From a virus: DNA of 26,003 nucleotides. This document shows positions 5,244-23,199 of this stretch, piece after piece. The DNA is taken from positions 1 to 26,003 of IMG/VR virus record IMGVR_UViG_3300013102_000068, one strand, 5' to 3'. Position numbers and translations under genes: made by a program. Numbering within the stretch: the first letter of the stretch is position 1; each line of letters opens with the position of its first letter. The notes under the pieces were generated by a model. That model saw only the letters and a list, made by a program, of their open reading frames with translations. It had not been told where the DNA came from and searched no databases.

Positions 5244-5274
5244 AGGGCTTCCCCAGTGCAGGGGGGCCCTTTTC
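5244..5274 (+). terminator. Rho-independent terminator after portal
   Basis: GGGC (5245-5248) and CCCC (5251-5254) pair with GGGG (5261-5264) and GCCC (5266-5269) over an AGTGCA loop, with a small internal bulge. CTTTTC follows. The GC-rich stem is strong for this genome and lies between portal and scaffold. Confidence 0.8.
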
Positions 5275-7535: not shown

Positions 7536-8120
7536 GTGAACTTACAAGAGATACTAGATGAAATATCTGATAAATACCCACATGGCATGTCCAATGACAG
7601 TGTAATCCGCAAGATAAATAACATTCAGGGAGAGTTGTTCCGAACAACATTCCGAGTGAAAACAATGTCAATCTACACTCTTGAAAAAGATGTGTTTGTA
7701 TACTCCTTGCCATTCGCACGAAGTAACCTATCTGATGTGGTGATTGATGGCGTTGAGTACCTATATCAGGACAGCAAAAAGAGATCAAACATACCTTTCT
7801 ATTACTTTGTTGGTCCTACTGGTCTAGGTATATTCCCAACACCTGAAAAGACTATCGTGGATGGAATGTCACTGCTCTACTACATGTCTCCAACACCGCT
7901 GACAGAACAGGCACTAGATGCCACTCCTGATCTTGACCAAGACTTTCACATGCTACTGGTGTACGGTGCCCTTGCACAGATATGTGAGTCCTTTAACGAT
8001 GTTGCCATGGTGAATAACTATACGAATAAATACAACGGATTAATCCAAGAGTTCAATAAAGTAAATGATGAGACTCCTGATTACCCTGTTATTGAAGATG
8101 TCATGGGGGTGTGGGGATGA
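7536..8120 (+). CDS. Head-to-tail connector (adaptor) protein
   Basis: A 194-residue, mostly helical protein in the slot between capsid and tail genes. Its N-terminus (LQEILDEISDKYPHGMSNDSVIRKINNIQGELFRT) and later 'LYYMSPTPLTEQALDATPDLDQDFHMLLVYGALAQICE' have the pattern of gp6/gp4-like adaptors that dock under the portal ring: a helical bundle whose 'Pxl..dfh.lL.ygala.i' helix is conserved. The start is GTG 7536 with AAAGGGGTGG (7522-7531) upstream. The stop overlaps the next gene's ATG (ATGA, 8117-8120). Exact family not confirmed; tail-completion protein is the alternative. Confidence 0.72.
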   Translation: MNLQEILDEISDKYPHGMSNDSVIRKINNIQGELFRTTFRVKTMSIYTLEKDVFVYSLPFARSNLSDVVIDGVEYLYQDSKKRSNIPFYYFVGPTGLGIFPTPEKTIVDGMSLLYYMSPTPLTEQALDATPDLDQDFHMLLVYGALAQICESFNDVAMVNNYTNKYNGLIQEFNKVNDETPDYPVIEDVMGVWG

Positions 8121-10297
8121 GCGAAGCATCAGAAGGATCGACGCAACAGTTCGTAAATGGTGGAGTCATCCCAAACGGGTTGGTTGGTCAGAATGCGGTA
8201 TCTAAAACATACGTAGACAATCAAAATTTACTGATGAATGCCGACATAAATATTATCGCTAGCTTAGCAGGAACGGCACAAGGTACAGCTGATACAGCAG
8301 TTAGTTCAGCGAGCGCGGCACAAGGTACAGCTAATTCAGCGGCAGGCGCGGCAAGTACAGCACAAGGTTCAGCGAACATGGCACAGGCTACCGCTGATGC
8401 TCATAAAGTTTCATTGACTGCTCATAGTGCATCAAATATAACTTACGATGGGTCAGTAGAGGGCGCTTTGAACGTGAAGCAAGCCATTGACCTCGCAAAG
8501 CAACGCGTAGATAACATTATCATAGGCGCAGGAAATAGCAATCTAGAAATTTTTGAAGCTCGCGGAACCTTTCCTATGTTGTCGGCTCGGTTAAATGACA
8601 ATGATGCGCAGTTGGCGGATAAGGCGAAGATGCAGGGGTATGGTTCTCCTATCAATAAATTCGGAATCAAAGAAAACCCGTTTCTTAATTTCAGAAGGGC
8701 TGTGCTAAAAAAGTCAGTTAACGTTACATTTTGGGGAGACAGTATAACAACAGGCGGTGATAAATTAGGAGTCAATTCAGCGAATCCTAGTGGTACAGAA
8801 TACGCACCAAACGGAATAGTTAACTCAGAAGGCTATACCCATATCATTTCAAAAGGAATCGCTAAGTCATTCCCACAAGCGACATTTAATTTTTACAATC
8901 GCGCCATTGGAGGAACAAACTTAAACGAGTGGAATACTTTAAAAACAATAGATTCTATTGAAAAAACGTGGATTGAACACGTAAAAGATACTCAACCAGA
9001 TTTATTATTTATTGGTTTTGGAATGAATCATCTTTCGTACGATTTAAGTAAGACATACGCAAGTAGTCTTAAAAAAGTTTATGAATATATCTATGCTAAT
9101 TTCACCAAGATTCCAGATATCGTGCTAGTTACTTCTCCAACATCTGTTTTTAATGGCAGTTCATGGAGTGATGATATAAACCAAGAATCAAGAAGAAATA
9201 CAGGAAAAACGGCTAGATATTTCGGATTGAAATATGCTGATTATATTTTAGATGTGTCCCGATATAGTGATATTTCTCGTTTTGGTAAGGATTTAGAAAG
9301 TTGTTATTTCGAACAAAAAACAACTTTCTCAACGACTGGAACAACTGATCTCGCGACATCAGGAACTAGCTTTATCATTAATGAAAAATGTCGAGACTTT
9401 ACACTTAAATTTATTCTTACTGCCACGAACATAACGGATGGAGAAAGTATTTTAATCAAATACAATAATGACGGAACCCTAAATAATCAATTAATGATAT
9501 ATCCGAATTTGGGTGGAGTTACAAAAGTATATAGTTACGGAAGAATCTCAGATTCGGCTAATCATACGTATTTAACGGATTCTTATATCCATGATAGTGT
9601 TATTTCTTCGCAATATTGGAGAATTGAAAAGCGAGAAAATGTTCTTAAAGTATTTATAGATGATGTACCAGAAACGATAATTGTCTATGATGATAAAGTT
9701 GATATTAACAACATATTAGGTAACATTACTTTCGTAAAGCAAGGCGGTAGTGTATCAACAATTAAAATAAATAATTTAACTTTTTTTGATCCTAAATATA
9801 TTGGGTATAAACAAACGATTACAGAAGAAGAAATGTGGGGTAAGTTTGTTAATAATAACTATTCAACAAAACCTATAACTGGTGGTAATGGTGCAAATCA
9901 CCCTAGTGCAAGAGGTGTCACCCAAATTTACGGTGTTGCTATCCAAGAAATGATATCTGACATCGAAAAAATATCTAAAACCCACTCAGAAATTGATTTA
10001 GAATTATATAGAGATGATATTGTTTTTACGACGAATGTATCATCTGTTTCAGGATACTGCTACGTTAATTTAACTCCAAATCAAGTGCCAATTTTACAAG
10101 GGATAGTATACAATTCGGATAAAACATTAGCCTTAAAAAAAAATAAATCTGTTGGAAAGCCAGATGATAAAACACTTTTAGCTGACAATGAATTCGGCAT
10201 TTACCTCACAGCAGATGTTATTCAAATTATTTTCAGAAATACGATGAGTGCAAATAGTACTACCCAGTTTAAGTTTAATACTTATCAATTCTTGTAA
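8117..10297 (+). CDS. Tail fibre/receptor-binding protein with SGNH esterase domain
   Basis: A 726-residue protein built of modules. Residues ~5-175 are a virion-anchor and coiled-coil region, shared in pattern with the next gene. Residues ~200-620 form an SGNH/GDSL hydrolase: GDS at 207-209 (block I, nucleophile Ser209), GG in RAIGGTN (block II), GFGMN with Asn304 (block III) and NHPS with His595 (block V, though Asp of the usual DxxH is Asn-Gly-Ala-Asn here). About 170 beta-rich residues (roughly 390-565) split the enzyme. A C-terminal ~100-residue region follows. Such enzymes deacetylate surface glycans during adsorption. ATG 8117, overlapping the previous stop and behind a G-rich site (8105-8116), is preferred over GTG 8111. 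The distal part is visibly more AT-rich than the anchor, suggesting acquisition. Confidence 0.85.
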   Translation: MSEASEGSTQQFVNGGVIPNGLVGQNAVSKTYVDNQNLLMNADINIIASLAGTAQGTADTAVSSASAAQGTANSAAGAASTAQGSANMAQATADAHKVSLTAHSASNITYDGSVEGALNVKQAIDLAKQRVDNIIIGAGNSNLEIFEARGTFPMLSARLNDNDAQLADKAKMQGYGSPINKFGIKENPFLNFRRAVLKKSVNVTFWGDSITTGGDKLGVNSANPSGTEYAPNGIVNSEGYTHIISKGIAKSFPQATFNFYNRAIGGTNLNEWNTLKTIDSIEKTWIEHVKDTQPDLLFIGFGMNHLSYDLSKTYASSLKKVYEYIYANFTKIPDIVLVTSPTSVFNGSSWSDDINQESRRNTGKTARYFGLKYADYILDVSRYSDISRFGKDLESCYFEQKTTFSTTGTTDLATSGTSFIINEKCRDFTLKFILTATNITDGESILIKYNNDGTLNNQLMIYPNLGGVTKVYSYGRISDSANHTYLTDSYIHDSVISSQYWRIEKRENVLKVFIDDVPETIIVYDDKVDINNILGNITFVKQGGSVSTIKINNLTFFDPKYIGYKQTITEEEMWGKFVNNNYSTKPITGGNGANHPSARGVTQIYGVAIQEMISDIEKISKTHSEIDLELYRDDIVFTTNVSSVSGYCYVNLTPNQVPILQGIVYNSDKTLALKKNKSVGKPDDKTLLADNEFGIYLTADVIQIIFRNTMSANSTTQFKFNTYQFL
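8275..8395 (+). repeat. 42-bp tandem repeat coding an Ala/Gln coiled coil
   Basis: GCACAAGGTACAGCT-like units start at 8276, 8318 and 8360, exactly 42 bp apart, with a half-period copy at 8381. The encoded unit is AQGTAxxAxSSASA, 14 residues, i.e. two heptads, so repeat number would change fibre length in whole heptad steps. Confidence 0.75.
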
Positions 10298-10357: not shown

Positions 10358-10380
10358 GAAAGAGGTGAGTAAATGCAACC
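10358..10380 (+). repeat. Duplicated gene-start junction, copy 1
   Basis: These 23 bases (GAAAGAGGTGAG, three variable bases, then ATGCAACC) are repeated at 12052-12074 with two differences. Both contain the ribosome binding site, start codon and first codons (Met-Gln-Pro). They exactly bracket the tailspike gene, as expected if that gene entered or was exchanged by recombination at the junction. Confidence 0.75.
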
Positions 10381-12037
10381 ACGTGATGCATCACAAGTTA
10401 TAGCTCAACAGTTTATAGACGCTGGCGTTGTTCCGGGGTTTATCCCTGGTCAGAATGCAGTAAGTAAGAAATACGTAGATGATCAAGATGCTATACGTGA
10501 TGTGAACATTGCAGCAGTAGCCACAGGGAATACAACGACAGCGAACGTTATTAATAACCATTTATCATCCAACACCGCACACGATGCACAGGATATAACA
10601 TACAGTGGAGAAGTTGCAACTGCTAATAACGTTAAACGTGCAATAGATTTCTTGGATTCTCGGGTAGATAATATCGCGTCGCAGTCAGGTGATGACATTA
10701 CCGAGATCAGGGACGCTCGTGGCATTTATCCAGTACTGTCGGCTAGGTTAGATGCAAGTGATGCGGATTTAAACGATAGAGCAAATAAAACAGATCTTGT
10801 GTTTAATGTAAAATATCCACCTCCTCCACTGATGGGTGCAAAAGGTGATGGGACAGACGACACAGCGGCTATAAAAGCCCTAATTGCTTTAATTCCTAAA
10901 AGTTCTGCTTGGGGAGGGGACGCTGGAAAATCAGGAGGTATATTGTTTTTCCCTTTAGGAAATTACGGAGTTAGAGAACAGCTTTTATTTGAGGGATTAG
11001 GCGTTGTTGTAAGTGGTGTCGGAGTAGAGTCAAGCGTTATTACAGCTCTCCCGAGTTTTACGGGTGAATCAGTTTTACGGTTTGACCAAACGAATGATGG
11101 TTATGCGAATGTCGGTGCAGGAATCGAAAACCTTGGCGTTTATATGAATGGAGTTAATGGTCACGGAATCATCATGGCTCGCGCTTATGATGGTGTTACG
11201 TTGAACGATGTATATGTCAAAGATGTTGCAGATGCTTATTCGGGATACCGTTTCATTCCAGATCCTGATGTAACTTTTGATAAAGTTAGTCAAACGTTAT
11301 ATCTATCGAATGTTCAAGCTATCCATAAAAATGCAACCGCAACAGGATCACTCTTTTATTTTGAAAGTTGTCAAGAAATCGTCTTATTGGGTTGTAAAGG
11401 ATTTGGCACTTGGGAATCAAACGGTAAAGCAAACTGTTACCCTTTCGAATTTGTTGACTGTCAGGGTGTAGTTGCTTATGGATGTTCTGCTGCATTTTCT
11501 AATTTAGCAGGCATAAAGGTTCGATCGGCAACACGTCCGATATCAGGGTACGTTTTTGATGGATGGACGTTCGAAACTATAGTTGGCATTATAGATATCA
11601 CAGGGACATCCAGTTATCACATAAAAAATGTGGCGTTTCGCTCTTGGCGTAGTGCTGGCGCAGGCGGGATACTCAAATTAGATTTTGTAGAATATTCACG
11701 GATAGAATCAGAAAGTTATCCAATAACAATAGGGGCAGGGTGTAACGGTGTTCATGTTGATTGCTACGGATCAGACGGTATAACAGACAGTGGAACGAAT
11801 ACCACAGTGTTTGCCGTGGGTGCAGCCAACATGCTACTTCAAGCAAGCACAAATATATTTCTGCGCGCAAGTGGTGGAAAAAACATGGCACAGTTTAATG
11901 AGCCTCCATCAACAGACACAACATCACTTTTGCTCAGAGTAAATAAAGGTGGATTTATGTACACGAGCAGAGTGGAAGTTGGGGGTGTAGATAGTGGTGG
12001 AACTGGTTACAGAATACTTCGTGTTCCTAACGCATAG
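10373..12037 (+). CDS. Tailspike with pectate-lyase-like beta helix
   Basis: A 554-residue protein whose first ~140 residues repeat the anchor pattern of the upstream gene: GQNAVSKKYVDDQ, then AHDAQDITYSGEV, NNVKRAIDFLDSRVDNI and ARGIYPVLSARLDASDADL. From about residue 153 it has the Pectate_lyase_3 signature (MGAKGDGTDDTAAIKALI), then GGILFFPLGNYGV and repeating short beta strands (LYLSNVQAI, IVLLGCKGFGT, VVAYGCSAAFS) that fit a right-handed parallel beta helix of a trimeric spike. These spikes bind or depolymerise cell-surface polysaccharide; catalytic residues cannot be fixed by eye. AGAGGTGAG (10361-10369) precedes ATG 10373. The start junction is nearly identical to that of the downstream gene. 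Confidence 0.85.
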   Translation: MQPRDASQVIAQQFIDAGVVPGFIPGQNAVSKKYVDDQDAIRDVNIAAVATGNTTTANVINNHLSSNTAHDAQDITYSGEVATANNVKRAIDFLDSRVDNIASQSGDDITEIRDARGIYPVLSARLDASDADLNDRANKTDLVFNVKYPPPPLMGAKGDGTDDTAAIKALIALIPKSSAWGGDAGKSGGILFFPLGNYGVREQLLFEGLGVVVSGVGVESSVITALPSFTGESVLRFDQTNDGYANVGAGIENLGVYMNGVNGHGIIMARAYDGVTLNDVYVKDVADAYSGYRFIPDPDVTFDKVSQTLYLSNVQAIHKNATATGSLFYFESCQEIVLLGCKGFGTWESNGKANCYPFEFVDCQGVVAYGCSAAFSNLAGIKVRSATRPISGYVFDGWTFETIVGIIDITGTSSYHIKNVAFRSWRSAGAGGILKLDFVEYSRIESESYPITIGAGCNGVHVDCYGSDGITDSGTNTTVFAVGAANMLLQASTNIFLRASGGKNMAQFNEPPSTDTTSLLLRVNKGGFMYTSRVEVGGVDSGGTGYRILRVPNA

Positions 12038-12051
12038 GGTTGTTTTTATTT

Positions 12052-12074
12052 GAAAGAGGTGAGCAGATGCAACC
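12052..12074 (+). repeat. Duplicated gene-start junction, copy 2
   Basis: Second copy of the 23-base junction, at the start of the beta-propeller-like tail gene (see 10358-10380). Confidence 0.75.
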
Positions 12075-13458
12075 TTGGGTAGCGTCACCAGACAGAACCA
12101 AGCCAGTCATTGTTACTTTGGCTGACGGTATAAATCAATCAGTAGAATCCATAGAGATCAAGGACAGTCAATGTACTTCCGTGGTCAACATGGATTCTTT
12201 TCTTTACCCTACATTGCAGGTGCGTGAAGGCAGTACATTGTTCAGCCAACACACAGGCTATATAAACCGCATATTCAAGTTTCTTAATGTTTGGTATTGC
12301 GGCAATGCTAGAGGGCTGTACAAACAATCTGGATCATCGTGGGTGGCTGTTTATGAGTACACTGACACCAATAATGATCGATTGTGGGATGCATCCATGT
12401 TTTTCGATGGCAGTAAGCTATTTTTTATAGATGGATCGCTTCAACTAAGACAGTATGATGGCACGACATTGACGACGCTCGGTAGCGCTCCTGCTAATAG
12501 TGCATTCATGACCACACATGCAAACCGTTTCTACTTAGCTAATCGTAACGATAATCAACTATCATTTTCAGGCTTAAGAGATGCTGCAGACTGGAGCAGT
12601 GTAAACAAGTATACCGGTACAGGTAAGTTCCCTATGGAAACGCCAGACGGTGAGTTGCCTGTAGGTCTTACAAACTTTAATAATCACGTTATCCTATTCA
12701 AGAAATACACCATGCACAAGCTATTTGGTGAGGATTCTACCAACTTCAATATGACGACACCATTCGGTGTTGGTTGTATCTCAGACCGTTCCATAGTACC
12801 AACAAGGGAATCGCTCTTCTGGTTGGCGGCTGATGGATTCTACGACTATATGGGAGGTTCGGCACCGACAAAGATTAGCGATCCGATAAAACATTACATT
12901 AATAGCATAAACTTAGCTAGCGCCCAACACTGTGTATCTGGCACAGATGGGCGTTTTGTTTATCTATCTCTAGTGACTGGATCAAGTGTATTACCTAATG
13001 TAACGCTCAAATATGACCTACAACGTCAATCTTGGTGGGTTGAGAGTTATGTAGCTACTTCCTTTCATTTGGATGGTCAGACGCTATACTATGGCACAGC
13101 AGATGGAAAGATTATGAAGGCTGGCGGTGCTACAGATGCAGGTGTTCCGATAGCTTGGAGCTTGGAAACAAAGCCATTCAGTGAGAATGACGAGACGATC
13201 AGGAAGGTCATACACCGCTTATCTATTGTGGCAGACATAGAAGTTGGATCAATGCTTAATGTCTCCTACTCTGGCGGTACAGAGGGCGGTGCATGGAATC
13301 AGGTGTACACCACTTCTAACGGCACTGGACAAATACAAAGTATCAAGATTCCTGTCATCGTCCGCACACCAGAAACATGGTTCAGATTGAAGATAAACGG
13401 AACAGGTAAGGTTAAGATTCACCGGATGATAAGAGAGCTATCTAGGAGGGGATCGTAG
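12067..13458 (+). CDS. Tail nozzle/stopper-like protein (probable beta propeller)
   Basis: A 463-residue protein, almost all beta. It has repeated blade-like segments such as FKFLNVWYCGNARGLYKQ, WDASMFFDGSKLFFIDGSLQLRQYDG, NNHVILFKKYTMHKLFG and DGRFVYLSLVTG, which suggest a WD- or Kelch-like propeller as found in short-tail hub/nozzle proteins (P22 gp10 or T7 gp12 type; P22 gp10 is of similar length). It would form the tail tube below the connector. ATG 12067, behind AGAGGTGAG (12055-12063), is chosen over an in-frame TTG at 12040. The stop overlaps the next GTG start by one base. The family assignment is by pattern and position only. Confidence 0.68.
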   Translation: MQPWVASPDRTKPVIVTLADGINQSVESIEIKDSQCTSVVNMDSFLYPTLQVREGSTLFSQHTGYINRIFKFLNVWYCGNARGLYKQSGSSWVAVYEYTDTNNDRLWDASMFFDGSKLFFIDGSLQLRQYDGTTLTTLGSAPANSAFMTTHANRFYLANRNDNQLSFSGLRDAADWSSVNKYTGTGKFPMETPDGELPVGLTNFNNHVILFKKYTMHKLFGEDSTNFNMTTPFGVGCISDRSIVPTRESLFWLAADGFYDYMGGSAPTKISDPIKHYINSINLASAQHCVSGTDGRFVYLSLVTGSSVLPNVTLKYDLQRQSWWVESYVATSFHLDGQTLYYGTADGKIMKAGGATDAGVPIAWSLETKPFSENDETIRKVIHRLSIVADIEVGSMLNVSYSGGTEGGAWNQVYTTSNGTGQIQSIKIPVIVRTPETWFRLKINGTGKVKIHRMIRELSRRGS

Positions 13459-14213
13459 TGGCTAATGTACAGCTACCCAACATCGGGCATACGAATAGCG
13501 ATATAGACGGAGCAAGCTTTTCACAACTACAAACTATCGTTAAATCGTTAATGAATACCACGGCAATGTTGACTGAAGAACTAACCTATTTACTTAATAA
13601 TCTGGATACGCGCAATGTGAATGAGTTGAATGCAGAGGTTATAACAGCTGGCTCGGTGACAGCGGATAAGATCACTGTAACTGAGTTGTCAGCATTGAGT
13701 GCTAATATGGGTAAGCTTACGTCAGGTGAGATTTTCGGAGCTTATATAGCTACTAGAGAGAATGCTTATCCTAGAGCTGAATTGAGCAATGAAGAAGATT
13801 TGTTTGCCGCTTATTTGGATGCCAATAACTACATTAAAGTTGAAGCTAACTATGGGGGTGTTCCATCATTAAATTTTATTCAAGGTGGAGCATTCAAAGC
13901 AAGAATGGACACTCTATTAGGATACTTGGAAATACGATCACTCACTTCACTACTTATTCAAGCAACGTTAGATGTTGAAATTGCCACAGGAGCATCATCT
14001 ATTTTAAAATTACCGCCATTTGGAAGAGTTGAATCTAGCACTGGTCAAAACTTGGGAGTGGAATTGGATAGTAAGGCTAAAGCAGGGATCTCAACAGGGC
14101 CATCAGGAGGACACAATCACGCAATACCGCCAGGAACTAGGTTACTTGTTGAAGGCGGTGGATATGTCACTTGGTCTCCTGTGTCAGATCATACGCATGC
14201 GCAGAACGGTTGA
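13458..14213 (+). CDS. Tail protein with His-rich C-terminal tip
   Basis: 251 residues starting at GTG 13458, overlapping the previous stop (TAGTG) and preceded by AGGAGGGG. The middle has the VITAGSVTADKITVTELSALSANMGKLTSGEI pattern common in Firmicute phage tail-tip/fibre proteins. The C-terminus carries GGHNHAIPPG at about 218-226 and a final HTHAQNG. Paired HxH motifs at the ends of phage fibres and needles can bind iron or another metal at a trimeric tip (known for T4 gp37-like tips). It is therefore probably a needle, plug or fibre at the end of the short tail. An overlapping frame at 14020-14265 looks like a shadow. Confidence 0.72.
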   Translation: MANVQLPNIGHTNSDIDGASFSQLQTIVKSLMNTTAMLTEELTYLLNNLDTRNVNELNAEVITAGSVTADKITVTELSALSANMGKLTSGEIFGAYIATRENAYPRAELSNEEDLFAAYLDANNYIKVEANYGGVPSLNFIQGGAFKARMDTLLGYLEIRSLTSLLIQATLDVEIATGASSILKLPPFGRVESSTGQNLGVELDSKAKAGISTGPSGGHNHAIPPGTRLLVEGGGYVTWSPVSDHTHAQNG

Positions 14214-14236: not shown

Positions 14237-14245
14237 TGGTATACT
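14237..14245 (+). promoter_or_regulatory. Extended -10 promoter for the inserted cassette
   Basis: TGGTATACT gives an extended TGn plus a near-consensus -10 (TATACT, 14240-14245). The -35 region 17 bp upstream is poor, which is normal for extended -10 promoters. It lies 30 bases before the start of the secreted protein gene and about 24 bases past the end of the preceding tail gene. Confidence 0.55.
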
Positions 14246-14275
14246 TACACCAAAATATGACATGAGGTGCGGACC

Positions 14276-14926
14276 ATGAAGATATTAAAAGGATTATCAC
14301 TATTGTTGTCAGGCGTAGTATTAGGTATTGGGATATCATTCTCTCCACAGATATATGCAGCAACTAGTGAACTGTTAGGTTCCACGGTAACAAGTATATT
14401 TACAATAGAACAAAACGGCGTAAAGATTGCTGATAGCGCAATTATAAACGGATCAGCCTACGTACCAGTGAGAGTGATGGCGGAAGCCACAGGAACGCCA
14501 CTTACAGTAGAAGGGAAGGTAATTACTTTGGGTGAAGATTCTACAACGGTACTTACTCCGGAACAAAATACAGCACTCGCAAAGCAACAAGACGATGAAG
14601 CGAAGGCTGAAACGGCAAGGTTAAATAATCTCTATAAAGAACAACGTACAATTGAAAAAAATATCGAAAAAGCAAAACAAACAATATCGTTGAGTACTAG
14701 CACGGCTTATACTCGTTTACTGGATAAAATAAAATTATATGAAGAACGCGTTTCTTTATATCCCGAACTTACCGAACTCGTAGGGGAACTTGAGAATTAC
14801 AAAAAAGATCTTTCTACAATGGAAAAATCGATTGCGGACGCTAAAGCGTCGTTGCCTATTTTACAAAAACAACTCGCTGACTTACTAGCGTCTGAACCCG
14901 GTCTTTCAATGTTTAAAGTTCAATAA
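14276..14926 (+). CDS. Secreted stalk-domain/coiled-coil protein (moron candidate)
   Basis: 216 residues. Residues 1-27 are a classic Sec signal peptide (MKILKGLSLLLSGVVLG..., cleavage near YAAT). Residues ~36-88 (NGVKIADSAIINGSAYVPVRVMAEATGTPLTVEGKVITL) match the copper-amine-oxidase-N-like 'stalk' domain abundant in Paenibacillus surface proteins; here it is a structural fold, not an enzyme. Residues ~95-205 are a long Lys/Glu/Ala-rich coiled coil. No LPXTG or C-terminal membrane anchor is seen. ATG 14276, behind GAGGTG (14264-14269), is preferred over GTG 14267. The gene has its own promoter and terminator among tail genes, suggesting expression in the lysogen, for example to modify the cell surface; this is inference. 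Confidence 0.75.
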   Translation: MKILKGLSLLLSGVVLGIGISFSPQIYAATSELLGSTVTSIFTIEQNGVKIADSAIINGSAYVPVRVMAEATGTPLTVEGKVITLGEDSTTVLTPEQNTALAKQQDDEAKAETARLNNLYKEQRTIEKNIEKAKQTISLSTSTAYTRLLDKIKLYEERVSLYPELTELVGELENYKKDLSTMEKSIADAKASLPILQKQLADLLASEPGLSMFKVQ

Positions 14927-14943
14927 TATATTTTTCCACATTG

Positions 14944-14968
14944 AGGACTCCTAACGGGGTCCTTTTTC
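14944..14968 (+). terminator. Rho-independent terminator closing the inserted cassette
   Basis: AGGACTCC (14944-14951) pairs with GGGGTCCT (14956-14963) with one G-T wobble over TAAC, followed by TTTTT. It insulates the cassette from the internal-protein genes. Confidence 0.82.
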
Positions 14969-14990: not shown

Positions 14991-16556
14991 ATGGCAACCG
15001 GAATAATAAAACCTACAGTAGCAGGAGTATCTGCATCACCAACAATAGGCAATGGTGGCGCAGACTACAACACCGCTGAATCAGCGCTGAAAAAGAAGAT
15101 TGCTCAGAACCAGTTAAACATAGCAACAAATAAAAATCATGTAGAAAGTGAAACATCTCGAGCATTGAAAGTCATTCAAGAAAGACAGGCTGCAGGTCAG
15201 GACACAACATCCCAACAAAAGTATCTTAATACCAACCTTGGGTATAAGGCTCCTACAACTAATGCAACCAATACAAACGCAAATAACGGATCTTCTACAA
15301 CGTTTAACGGTAATGGAATAGGATCTGGCAGTCAGATTAATAGTAGAACAGAAGAGAGTAGCAAACTAATGCAGCAGATGAAGGCTATAGGGGAAAGGGA
15401 AGCAACACAATTCAGCTATGATCCTAACTCTGATCCAGCTTATCAGGCTGCATTGAAGCGCGCACAAGCCAATATTGACGTTGGAAATTCACAAGCTCAA
15501 GCGGAAATGAACCGCAGAGGAATTCTAAACAGCACCATTACAAGTGATCGTATGGGCGAGATCGCAAGTGCTGAGATGGGCAATGTAGAAACCACAGTCA
15601 TTCCGCAATTAATGCAACAGGCATATCAGAAATATATTGATGCGCAGAACCAAGAGCAACAACGATTCACTAATCTTGGTGCATTATCAGATAAATACAA
15701 CAATGAAGATCAGAGATCTATCGATAACAATTTCACTGAAGCTAACATAACAGGAAATTACTTACCAGAAGCAGCTAAACCGATCATAAGTCAAATACTA
15801 CAGCTTAAACAGCAAGCAGAAGCGCCGGGAATTACAGCTGCGGATAAAGCGCAACTAAGCGCAAGAGCTGATGGATACCGCGCCAAGTTAATAAGCCTAA
15901 ATGTCGATCCTAGCGCTTATGCCGCAACAGTTAATCACAACAATGCAAGTCTTAACCCGGGGATTCGCACCATTGCAGGTCAACAGTTAGATGCGTCTAA
16001 GCAAGCACAATCATTCAATCAGAACATGGACATTAGAAAACAAAAATTCACAGAAGGCCAGCAGACTTGGCAGAATAACTTCCAATCTGAACAACAGGGA
16101 TGGGAAAACAACTTCGCTAATGAGCAACAAGCATACAAAGTAGGTCGTGACTCGGTAGATGATACATTTAGAAATGCTCAACAGAAATTAACTGAGCAAG
16201 TCCAATTAGGCGGATTGAAACTAGACAGAGCTAATCAGTTGTTAAATCAAGCTGAAGCTCTCGGTTATGTAACCCCTGAACTTTCAGCCGCTACCGGAAT
16301 GCCATCAGGTCAACCATTCGCAAGCAAAAATTATGGTTCAGCAAAAGCGGCGCCAGTTGCGGAGGATTACTTAAGTTTTATTGATAAAATAGCCGTTATG
16401 AACGGATCAACATTGAAAAATCCGATCGATGTTGAAAATTATATTCTTAACACTCCGGCATCTGATTATGAAAAGTACAGAATGTACATCGCTAAAGGTT
16501 TGAAATGGGATGGTCCGGTTCCACAGCCGGGGGAGCAACAGCCACTTCAACCGTAA
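14991..16556 (+). CDS. Internal virion / ejection-type protein, Q/N-rich
   Basis: 521 residues, Gln-, Asn- and Ala-rich and mostly helical. Residues ~85-120 are an Asn/Thr/Gly-rich linker. Later helices include 'FSYDPNSDPAYQAALKRAQANIDVGNS', a pattern I associate with internal proteins of Gram-positive phages, and the near-repeats TWQNNFQSEQQ and GWENNFANEQQ (about 360-382). Its place after the tail genes and before the giant 1517-residue protein matches the ejection-protein block of short-tailed phages. GGAGCG (14979-14984) precedes the ATG. The C-terminus overlaps a lysozyme-like ORF by 52 bases in the -1 frame, and the join may be read through by frameshifting (see findings). Confidence 0.62.
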   Translation: MATGIIKPTVAGVSASPTIGNGGADYNTAESALKKKIAQNQLNIATNKNHVESETSRALKVIQERQAAGQDTTSQQKYLNTNLGYKAPTTNATNTNANNGSSTTFNGNGIGSGSQINSRTEESSKLMQQMKAIGEREATQFSYDPNSDPAYQAALKRAQANIDVGNSQAQAEMNRRGILNSTITSDRMGEIASAEMGNVETTVIPQLMQQAYQKYIDAQNQEQQRFTNLGALSDKYNNEDQRSIDNNFTEANITGNYLPEAAKPIISQILQLKQQAEAPGITAADKAQLSARADGYRAKLISLNVDPSAYAATVNHNNASLNPGIRTIAGQQLDASKQAQSFNQNMDIRKQKFTEGQQTWQNNFQSEQQGWENNFANEQQAYKVGRDSVDDTFRNAQQKLTEQVQLGGLKLDRANQLLNQAEALGYVTPELSAATGMPSGQPFASKNYGSAKAAPVAEDYLSFIDKIAVMNGSTLKNPIDVENYILNTPASDYEKYRMYIAKGLKWDGPVPQPGEQQPLQP

Positions 16557-17155
16557 GCGGTGGCTTAGGATCGTTGTCTAGCAAATATGAGTCAGGCGGT
16601 AACGCTGGCTCTATTGCTCGGACACCTGGCGATATAGGCGGTGCCAGTTACGGTAAGTATCAATTAACAACAGCAAGCGGATCAGCTAAGGCATTTGTGG
16701 AGTCTCTTAAAAATATTGATAAAACGGCATATCAACAACTAGCTGGCAAAGCTCCTGGTTCTGCTGCATTTGATAGTGCTTGGAAAGCTGTGGCAAACGG
16801 TAATTCTAACTTTGGATCCTACCAACATAACTTTATTCAACAAAAATATTTTGATCCAGCTGTAAGTTCGGTCAAAAAAGTCATAGGGCTAGACGTAACC
16901 AGACGTTCTCAAGCTGTTCAAGATGCGATATGGTCCACTGCTGTTCAACACGGTTCGGGTAGTGTAGCTAAAATACTTAAGAATGCTGGAATATCACCAA
17001 TGACAAGCGATGCCGAAATCATAAAAAGAATCTACGCTGAACGGGCTGCTGGTAATGGGACTAAATATTTTTCTAAATCATCTACAGCCGTTCGGAATAG
17101 CGTTGTGAAACGATTCGGAAGTGAAATGAAAGATGCTTTGAACATGCTGACATAG
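16505..17155 (+). CDS. Lysozyme-like virion peptidoglycan hydrolase
   Basis: 216 codons. Residues ~24-53 (SLSSKYESGGNAGSIARTPGDIGGASYGKYQLTT) match the lysozyme-like/VgrG-related hydrolase signature, with Glu29 the likely general acid and GDxGGxSYGxYQ the conserved strand. The rest is helical with a basic C-terminus. In short-tailed phages such a domain is often carried by an ejection protein and bores through peptidoglycan during DNA entry, which fits its place between two internal proteins and apart from the late lysis genes. The ATG at 16505 overlaps the upstream gene by 52 bases and has only a weak AAAGG before it; the Gly/Ser/Thr-rich first 22 residues look like a linker, so it may be made as a fusion. 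Confidence 0.75.
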   Translation: MGWSGSTAGGATATSTVSGGLGSLSSKYESGGNAGSIARTPGDIGGASYGKYQLTTASGSAKAFVESLKNIDKTAYQQLAGKAPGSAAFDSAWKAVANGNSNFGSYQHNFIQQKYFDPAVSSVKKVIGLDVTRRSQAVQDAIWSTAVQHGSGSVAKILKNAGISPMTSDAEIIKRIYAERAAGNGTKYFSKSSTAVRNSVVKRFGSEMKDALNMLT

Positions 17156-22196: not shown

Positions 22197-22349
22197 TTGG
22201 CAGTGGAAGAAATCAAATGGCAGTATAGTGCAATTCAAGAATCTGGATCGGATGAACTTAAATACGTTATCGAGATACTTACGGCAGGACAAGCACCAGG
22301 ACAACCAATTAGAGAGGGTGAACAGTATGAAAAAAATAATTGTAATTGA
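22197..22349 (+). CDS. Small hypothetical protein overlapping the amidase start
   Basis: This frame is open from 22146 to TGA 22347-22349. I take TTG 22197 as start because AGGTGGG (22185-22191) is well spaced. ATG 22158 has a ribosome binding site only two bases away, and GTG 22149 has none. The product (AVEEIKWQYSAIQESGSDELKYVIEILTAG...) is helical and looks like a genuine small phage protein. It overlaps the amidase ATG by 23 bases, which suggests coupling. The amidase frame is also open through this whole stretch, so an amidase with an N-terminal extension is the competing reading. Confidence 0.45.
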   Translation: MAVEEIKWQYSAIQESGSDELKYVIEILTAGQAPGQPIREGEQYEKNNCN

Positions 22350-23199
22350 TGCAGGACATGGAGATAAAGACCCGGGAGCCATTGGTGTTACTGGGAATAA
22401 AGAAAAGGATTTCAATCTAACAATGGCCTTGAAAGTGGAAAGACTGTTGCTGGACCATCCATCTATTACTGTACTGCTGACACGTAGAACTGATGTATTC
22501 CTTGAGTTAAAGGAACGTTCAGACTTTGCTAATAAAGCTAATGCAGATGCTTTCATATCCATTCATGCTAATAGCTACACACCTACCTCAGCAGGGACAG
22601 AGACGCATTACACACGTTCTGATAGTAAAGGGCTTGCTACGATCCTTCAAAAGTACACAGTACTCTCAACAGGTTTAAAGGATCGAGGGCTTAAAGTAGG
22701 TAAATTGTACGTCACAAAAAATACAAAGATGCCAGCGTGTTTATTAGAACCAGCATTTTTAAGTAACCCCGCTGAAGAATCGCTTCTATATAATACAGAA
22801 TTTCAAGATACATTTGCGCTCAACATTTCGAAAGCTATTTGTGAATTTTGTGGTGTCGCCTACGAAATCGAACCAACGCCTGCACCGCAACCAATTCCGG
22901 ATAATCCGTCACCATATCCGACCATGGAAGTTACTATCAATACAGCAAATCCGAAGTCATTCATAGGATACTCTATTAAAGGATCTACGTGGATACCATC
23001 CAGACCGATTTGTGACATCTTGGGAGCTGATGTTTTATACAACAAAGGAATAGTATCTATCAACGGCACGAAGCTAGAGACTCAACTCATCAACGGTGTG
23101 GGCTACGTTAAACCTCGTGATCTATCGGCTCAAACAGGAGCAAGAATATTCTGGGATAAAAGTAATCCGAAGAGAGTTGAAATTTTCACTTCATTATAA
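22327..23199 (+). CDS. N-acetylmuramoyl-L-alanine amidase (endolysin)
   Basis: 290 residues. Residues 4-175 are an Amidase_3 domain with all zinc and catalytic residues: His11 (IDAGHGDKDPG), Glu26 (KEKDFN), His80 (SIHANS) and Glu141 (LLEPAFLSN). It cleaves the bond between MurNAc and L-Ala in peptidoglycan to lyse the cell. A Pro-rich linker (PTPAPQPIPDNPSPYP, ~183-200) leads to a C-terminal domain (VTINTANPKSFIGYSIKGSTWIPSRPICDILGADVLY...) related to the copper-amine-oxidase-N-like stalk fold, probably a wall-binding part. No signal peptide, so export depends on the holin encoded next. ATG 22327 follows GAGAGGGTGA (22311-22320). The same frame is open 360 bases further upstream to a TTG at 21967. 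Confidence 0.88.
   Translation: MKKIIVIDAGHGDKDPGAIGVTGNKEKDFNLTMALKVERLLLDHPSITVLLTRRTDVFLELKERSDFANKANADAFISIHANSYTPTSAGTETHYTRSDSKGLATILQKYTVLSTGLKDRGLKVGKLYVTKNTKMPACLLEPAFLSNPAEESLLYNTEFQDTFALNISKAICEFCGVAYEIEPTPAPQPIPDNPSPYPTMEVTINTANPKSFIGYSIKGSTWIPSRPICDILGADVLYNKGIVSINGTKLETQLINGVGYVKPRDLSAQTGARIFWDKSNPKRVEIFTSL

What the first reader, a model, noticed from the sequence alone, without database searches (positions are those of the whole stretch)
14237..14968. Moron cassette encoding a secreted stalk/coiled-coil protein
A gene with signal peptide, stalk domain and long coiled coil sits between virion genes with its own extended -10 promoter and terminator. This autonomous layout is the hallmark of lysogenic-conversion genes. 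A surface-exposed coiled coil could block superinfection or alter host surface traits. The endolysin at 22327 carries a domain of the same fold.
Basis: partly seen in the sequence, partly recalled or inferred. Interest (0 to 1): 0.58.

Follow-up and report, generated by a model that had tools for sequence, protein, structure and literature searches.

The report
Tail-linked secreted phage cassette in Paenibacillus
Next to the gene for the tip of its tail, this bacterial virus carries a small gene for an exported protein with its own on-switch, and in two related viruses that exported protein is a copy of the tail tip itself, which suggests that such proteins stop other viruses from attaching.

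Summary
The features are real. 14276-14926 encodes a 216-aa protein with a signal-peptide-like start, a small stalk-like domain and a long helical region. It has an extended -10 upstream (14237-14245) and a terminator hairpin downstream (14943-14964). In this window alone the -10 is at chance level; comparison makes it strong. It recurs at fixed spacing before the same gene in 18 of 19 distinct upstream regions of related podophage-like records, against 3 of 261 control ORFs. The terminator is less diagnostic, because other late junctions have hairpins too.

"Moron absent from relatives" is not supported. The slot is filled in 21 of 21 records: stalk protein in 20, another protein in one. In Paenibacillus genomes, 23 of 23 tail genes of family phrog_32308 have a stalk gene (22) or a substitute (1) directly downstream.

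The substitute is the key. In a podophage record (L017) and a siphophage-type prophage (L067) it is the same signal peptide fused to a copy of the C-terminal domain of the tail protein.

Best explanation: an exported superinfection-exclusion protein encoded beside the tail tip, analogous to T5 Llp/pb5 but not homologous and not a lipoprotein. Layout and linkage are shown; export, lysogenic expression and receptor blocking are inferred.

The parts
13458..14213 (+). tail protein whose C-terminal tip varies between relatives; HxH motifs near its end (HNH, HTH)
   Evidence: weak PHROG tail matches 1101 and 1330; HxH in the last 80 aa in 15 of 21 records; directly upstream of the slot in 21 of 21 records
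14237..14245 (+). extended -10 element TGGTATACT, 30 nt before the start codon
   Evidence: 7/8 or better in 18 of 19 distinct upstream regions, 27-33 nt before the start codon, against 3 of 261 control ORFs
14246..14275 (+). conserved leader (CCAAAATATGACA) and ribosome-binding site (GAGGTG, 14264-14269)
   Evidence: nearly identical to L003 although the proteins are 37% identical; alignment of 14 leaders
14276..14926 (+). stalk and coiled-coil secreted protein, 216 aa, phrog_23118
14276..14362 (+). signal-peptide-like N-terminus, about residues 1-29, by pattern only
   Evidence: no signal-peptide program was available
14387..14530 (+). stalk-like beta-rich domain (residues 38-85)
   Evidence: AlphaFold2 model; PF07833 below cutoff
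14558..14893 (+). long helical region, likely coiled coil (residues 95-206)
   Evidence: AlphaFold2, pLDDT mostly 95 or more; sequence matches mostly to generic coiled coils
14943..14968 (+). intrinsic-terminator-like hairpin and T run
   Evidence: a hairpin within about 52 nt of the next virion gene in 18 of 20 records with that gene
14991..16556 (+). next late gene (521 aa, no convincing family match), the right border of the slot
   Evidence: homolog found in 20 of 21 records
22969..23058 (+). stalk-like match in the C-terminus of the endolysin (amidase starting at 22327)
   Evidence: PF07833 22.1 bits, below cutoff; similar C-termini in L016, L011, L023 and weakly in PG1

Best explanation
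The cassette encodes an exported exclusion protein that belongs with the tail-tip gene beside it. A host-type sigma-A promoter (extended -10) starts a short transcript just after the tail gene, and a hairpin ends it before the next late gene, so the protein can be made while the late genes are off. It is exported, stays in or near the cell wall (perhaps through the stalk domain, which these phages also put on their endolysin), and its helical region or, in the substitute version, an exported copy of the tail-tip domain occupies or hides the surface site that the matching tail uses. A lysogen would thus resist phages with the same kind of tail. Shown: gene, promoter and hairpin conservation, linkage to the tail gene, and replacement by signal peptide plus tail-tip domain. 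Inferred: export, expression in lysogens, wall retention, receptor blocking.
For: (1) Promoter: 18 of 19 distinct upstream regions, fixed spacing, 3 of 261 controls, although the proteins are only 18-37% identical to P0001 where the gene two places upstream is 70-84% identical. (2) Exported by pattern in 46 of 46 homologs. (3) Linkage: 21 of 21 podophage-like records and 23 of 23 phrog_32308 tail genes in 39 Paenibacillus genomes have a stalk or substitute gene directly downstream. (4) Substitute: L017 11137-11574 joins a stalk-type signal peptide (60% over 35 aa to L063) to a domain 49% identical over 98 aa (E 6e-29) to the C-terminus of its own upstream tail protein; PHROGs match phrog_23118 at 1-35 and phrog_32308 at 13-144. 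A second, 63% identical, sits after a tail gene in siphophage-type L067. (5) The stalk protein co-varies with the tail C-terminus beyond the core gene (partial r 0.35, p 0.002, 18 records), less with the other flank (0.17, p 0.087). (6) Precedent: T5 Llp is adjacent and downstream to pb5, and purified pb5 blocks T5 infection (PMC9586334, passages); Drexlerviridae RBP genes were suggested to lie with cognate exclusion genes (PMC8594841, passage).
Against: No expression, localisation or infection data. Co-variation can come from physical linkage alone, and the stalk also correlates with the core gene after controlling for the tail tip (r 0.22, p 0.03). Receptor binding by the tail C-terminus is not shown. 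Most slots hold a stalk and coiled coil, not a tail-tip copy; the substitute was seen in only two loci. Some family members lie in host contexts (L041 and L042 beside an ArAE_1 exporter, L042 also beside CotE; L051, L065). Hairpins are common at late junctions. No fold match at E 1e-3 or better.
Confidence: 0.45

Rival explanations
1. General lysogenic-conversion surface protein: the prophage exports it to change wall, biofilm or spore-related traits of the host, and its place beside the tail gene is historical.
For: Own promoter and signal peptide; family members in host contexts, two beside an aromatic acid exporter gene and one of these next to cotE; stalk-type domains are common in secreted Paenibacillus proteins (recalled).
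Against: The linkage to tail genes (21 of 21, 23 of 23) and the signal peptide plus tail-tip substitutes are unexplained.
Confidence: 0.22
2. Tail-fibre partner or minor virion component: like fibre chaperones it is encoded just after the fibre gene and helps assembly.
For: Strict position after the tail gene; coiled coils are frequent in tail proteins (recalled).
Against: A signal-peptide-like start in 46 of 46 homologs and a conserved host-type promoter of its own do not fit a cytoplasmic late assembly factor; host-context copies have no tail gene beside them.
Confidence: 0.12
3. Protection from lysis from without: the stalk domain competes with the similar C-terminal domain of the phage endolysin for wall sites, shielding lysogens from lysin released by neighbours.
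For: The endolysin C-terminus carries a stalk-like match in the window, and similar C-termini occur in L016, L011, L023 and weakly in PG1.
Against: Both PF07833 matches are below cutoff; the substitute proteins carry a tail-tip domain instead of a stalk, although the L067 phage keeps a stalk-like C-terminus on its amidase.
Confidence: 0.1
4. Late-expressed gene with a fortuitous -10: the hairpin and promoter only tune late transcription.
For: In one genome the -10 is at chance level; hairpins occur at other late junctions.
Against: Position-specific conservation in 18 of 19 distinct upstream regions against 3 of 261 controls.
Confidence: 0.08

Closest known systems
phrog_23118 (PHROGs v4, unknown function)
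   Same: P0001 matches at E 2.6e-11 and 45 of 46 aligned homologs match
   Different: the family has no assigned function; the promoter, the tail linkage and the tail-tip substitute are not part of it
T5 Llp beside pb5, and related exclusion proteins (Cor, Rtp45)
   Same: exported small protein encoded next to the receptor-binding gene; T5 Llp is adjacent and downstream to pb5 (PMC9586334, passages read)
   Different: Llp and Cor are lipoproteins, and all three act on outer-membrane proteins of Gram-negative hosts; here no lipobox, Gram-positive host, stalk and coiled coil or tail-tip copy; no detected homology
Phage morons (lysogenic-conversion genes)
   Same: own promoter and terminator inside the late region
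   Different: present in every comparable relative, so not an optional insertion
PF07833 stalk (copper amine oxidase N-terminal) domain proteins
   Same: weak match over part of the domain
   Different: below Pfam's cutoff; one short repeat followed by a long helical region
PANG_00016 of Paenibacillus phage PG1
   Same: homolog of the family (E 1.3e-24 with the stalk profile), encoded between tail genes, followed by a Pmp3-like gene and a hairpin
   Different: siphophage-type genome; its -10 is TATACT without the TG; annotated hypothetical protein

Membership tests
Phage moron (lysogenic-conversion gene) | own promoter | tested here: met
   sequence conservation only: 18 of 19 distinct upstream regions
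Phage moron (lysogenic-conversion gene) | own terminator | tested here: met
   not diagnostic, other late junctions have hairpins
Phage moron (lysogenic-conversion gene) | absent from close relatives whose flanking genes are adjacent | tested here: not met
   slot occupied in 21 of 21 comparable records; only distant L035 (29% match) shows no homolog of the two flanking genes
Phage moron (lysogenic-conversion gene) | expressed from the repressed prophage | not testable with these tools
   needs RNA-seq of lysogens
phrog_23118 | profile match | tested here: met
   E 2.6e-11, residues 8-146
PF07833 stalk domain | score above the curated cutoff | tested here: not met
   21.1 bits against 24.2
RBP-linked superinfection-exclusion proteins (Llp type) | gene adjacent to the receptor-binding gene | tested here: inconclusive
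   adjacent to a tail-tip gene in 21 of 21 and 23 of 23 cases; that this gene binds the receptor is not shown
RBP-linked superinfection-exclusion proteins (Llp type) | lipoprotein | tested here: not met
   no lipobox in 46 of 46 homologs
RBP-linked superinfection-exclusion proteins (Llp type) | blocks adsorption of phages using the same receptor | not testable with these tools
   needs an adsorption assay

The most novel reading that the evidence does not exclude
Paenibacillus prophages of two tail types carry a mobile two-gene unit: a tail-tip gene and, behind its own promoter, an exported partner that makes the lysogen resistant to phages with that tip. In some the partner is an exported copy of the tail-tip domain, a receptor decoy made by the phage from its own tail; in most it has been replaced by a stalk and coiled-coil shield.
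Probability: 0.35. Interest if true: 0.78.

Novelty: new variant of a known kind. Interest (0 to 1): 0.56.

Why it matters
Exclusion genes beside receptor-binding genes are known from Gram-negative hosts. A counterpart in Gram-positive prophages, shared by phages with different tails, would give a rule for finding exclusion genes by position, and the tail-tip fusions point to a direct mechanism that can be tested with one cloned gene.

Tried and rejected
Direct tblastn of P0001, of the L004 protein and of the L052 protein against 50,697 phage records: no match. The L011 and L040 proteins found only phage PG1, as two records of one genome. No Rfam match, no tRNA. Foldseek with the P0001 model against PDB and BFVD, and with the L017 slot model against PDB: nothing at E 1e-3 or better; the L017 slot model is poor (pLDDT 65.6). 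Leader hairpin hiding the ribosome-binding site: folds in about half of the leaders only, not pursued. Fast adaptive evolution as the reason for divergence: close pairs show dN/dS 0.06-0.39, and the window against L003 is too diverged to judge. Paper searches showed no description of this cassette in their listings; I read passages only of PMC12685063, PMC9586334, PMC9863714, PMC11436027 (none of the six terms found), PMC9341999, PMC8594841 and PMC11990801. The paper library is partial.

Rows dropped before the 21-record count: L003-L009 (same contigs as L013-L016, L018, L019, L025), L019 (gives the same identities and ORFs as L010), L025 (same for L011, and cut), L028 and L034 (cut), L035 (29% match, no flanking homologs found), L002 (only the last 74 residues of the gene). 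L026 and L029, and L020 and L032, have identical upstream sequence, hence 19 distinct regions.

Full report
What is there. The window is a 26,003-bp virus record. Gene order, in part recalled from typical layouts: packaging and capsid genes on the left, two long tail genes (8111-10297, 10373-12037), a gene matching connector and internal virion PHROGs (12040-13458), a tail protein (13458-14213), the gene in question (14276-14926), late genes, a muramidase-like gene (16505-17155, PF21277), a 1517-aa gene, an amidase, a holin match and an integrase on the minus strand. The gene encodes 216 aa with a signal-peptide-like start, a small beta-rich domain with a sub-cutoff PF07833 match and a long helical region. 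It belongs to phrog_23118, function unknown.

Promoter and terminator. The -10 TGGTATACT at 14237 is not unusual in one genome. I therefore compared relatives. A first pair, window and L003, keeps the -10 and leader almost letter for letter while the proteins are 37% identical. Over 21 records the extended -10 has 7 or 8 of 8 matches in 20; counted by distinct upstream sequence it is 18 of 19, always 27-33 nt before the start codon, against 3 of 261 distinct upstream regions of other ORFs of at least 100 aa in the same records. Shorter controls agree: 50 nt before three neighbouring genes reach 7/8 in 0 of 21, 1 of 21 and 1 of 20, random 50-mers in 1.9%. These tests do not correct for common descent. 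The exception is L017, whose slot gene has an ordinary TATACT with a weak -35 (read). A terminator-like hairpin lies in 20 of 21 slots, within about 52 nt of the next late gene in 18 of the 20 records that have it, whatever genes the slot holds. The hairpin is weak evidence of autonomy, because others occur at 5244, 7121, 7495 and 10327.

Not an optional insertion. Relatives were found through the conserved 12040 gene. The slot is filled in 21 of 21 comparable records: stalk gene in 20, a substitute in L017. Cargo behind the first gene varies: none, a 168-aa gene in L013, a 61-80-aa membrane-type gene in L014, L010, L017 and L030, or a longer insert with a BRO-like gene (recalled) in L018. Host links come from L010 and L011, which lie in Paenibacillus senegalimassiliensis and P. 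maysiensis.

Wider family. In 40 genomes of that genus, 20 have a match to the stalk profile at E 1e-15 or better, 31 places in all. Of 22 upstream neighbours tested, 16 match phage tail or virion families; L041, L042, L051 and L065 look like host loci, L055 and L060 are unclear. In the other direction, phrog_32308 has 24 places in 17 of 39 genomes. One place is a substitute gene itself; all other 23 tail genes have a stalk gene (22) or the substitute (1) directly downstream. Caveat: that tail family was chosen because it flanked stalk genes. PG1, a siphophage, has the same arrangement.

The substitute. L017 11137-11574 starts with the signal peptide typical of the stalk genes (60% over 35 aa to L063, E 4e-9) and continues with a domain 49% identical over 98 aa to residues 134-225 of the tail protein encoded just upstream (E 6e-29). 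Alignment confirms this, and PHROGs independently match the start to phrog_23118 and the rest to the tail family. L067, the same locus as one in genome G008, carries a 63-64% identical gene after a siphophage-type tail gene, with a hairpin behind it. So the same kind of gene sits in the same slot of two different phage types. Only these two loci were found.

Co-variation. In 18 podophage-like records the distances between stalk proteins follow those between the tail C-termini (r 0.48), also after controlling for the core gene (0.35, p 0.002), less so for the gene on the other side (0.17, p 0.087). The stalk also follows the core gene after controlling for the tail tip (0.22, p 0.03). Linkage alone could give this pattern.

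Mechanism. The simplest reading is an exported product that interferes with adsorption through the matching tail tip. In T5 the exclusion protein Llp is encoded adjacent and downstream to the receptor-binding protein pb5, and added pb5 itself blocks infection (PMC9586334, passages). Similar positions have been suggested for Drexlerviridae (PMC8594841) and are mentioned for other small coliphages (PMC11990801, passages). The cassette works like this in layout; it is not a member of that family, because there is no lipobox in 46 of 46 homologs and no detected homology. Export, wall location, expression in lysogens and exclusion remain untested.

Verdict. The moron label is partly right: autonomous layout yes, optional insertion no. 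The new points are the strict tail-gene linkage and the exported tail-tip copies.

Noticed in passing
L043, L052, L057, L061, L064, upstream of the stalk gene: TGAAAC-N16-CGATAAT, which resembles promoters of extracytoplasmic-function sigma factors (recalled) but can also be read as a sigma-A promoter (TTGAAA-18-GATAAT); 5 of 29 loci against 5 of 2000 random stretches.
   Followed up: partly
L041 and L042, stalk gene at about 1500-2055: A stalk gene in a host context in two Paenibacillus genomes: beside an ArAE_1 exporter gene in both and next to cotE in L042; possibly a domesticated copy.
   Followed up: partly
window 14246-14275 and leaders of relatives: In about half of the leaders the bases just after the -10 can pair with the ribosome-binding site, so read-through transcripts might be translated less than transcripts from the own promoter.
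   Followed up: partly
window 5244, 7121, 7495, 10327: Strong terminator-like hairpins at several late-gene junctions, which suggests read-through or antitermination in the late operon.
   Followed up: no
L018 11901-15769: Slot enlarged to 3.9 kb with extra genes, one of which looks like a BRO-type antirepressor (recalled).
   Followed up: no
L020, L026, L027, L029, L032, between the stalk gene and the terminator: A conserved 56-aa ORF (MPKETQEKL...) follows the stalk gene; no Pfam match for the L027 copy.
   Followed up: no
L012 (PG1) 10820-11014: A Pmp3-family small membrane protein gene follows the stalk gene (PF01679).
   Followed up: no
window 8111-10297 and 10373-12037: Two adjacent long tail genes whose N-termini look alike by eye, probably two spikes on a shared attachment domain.
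   Followed up: no
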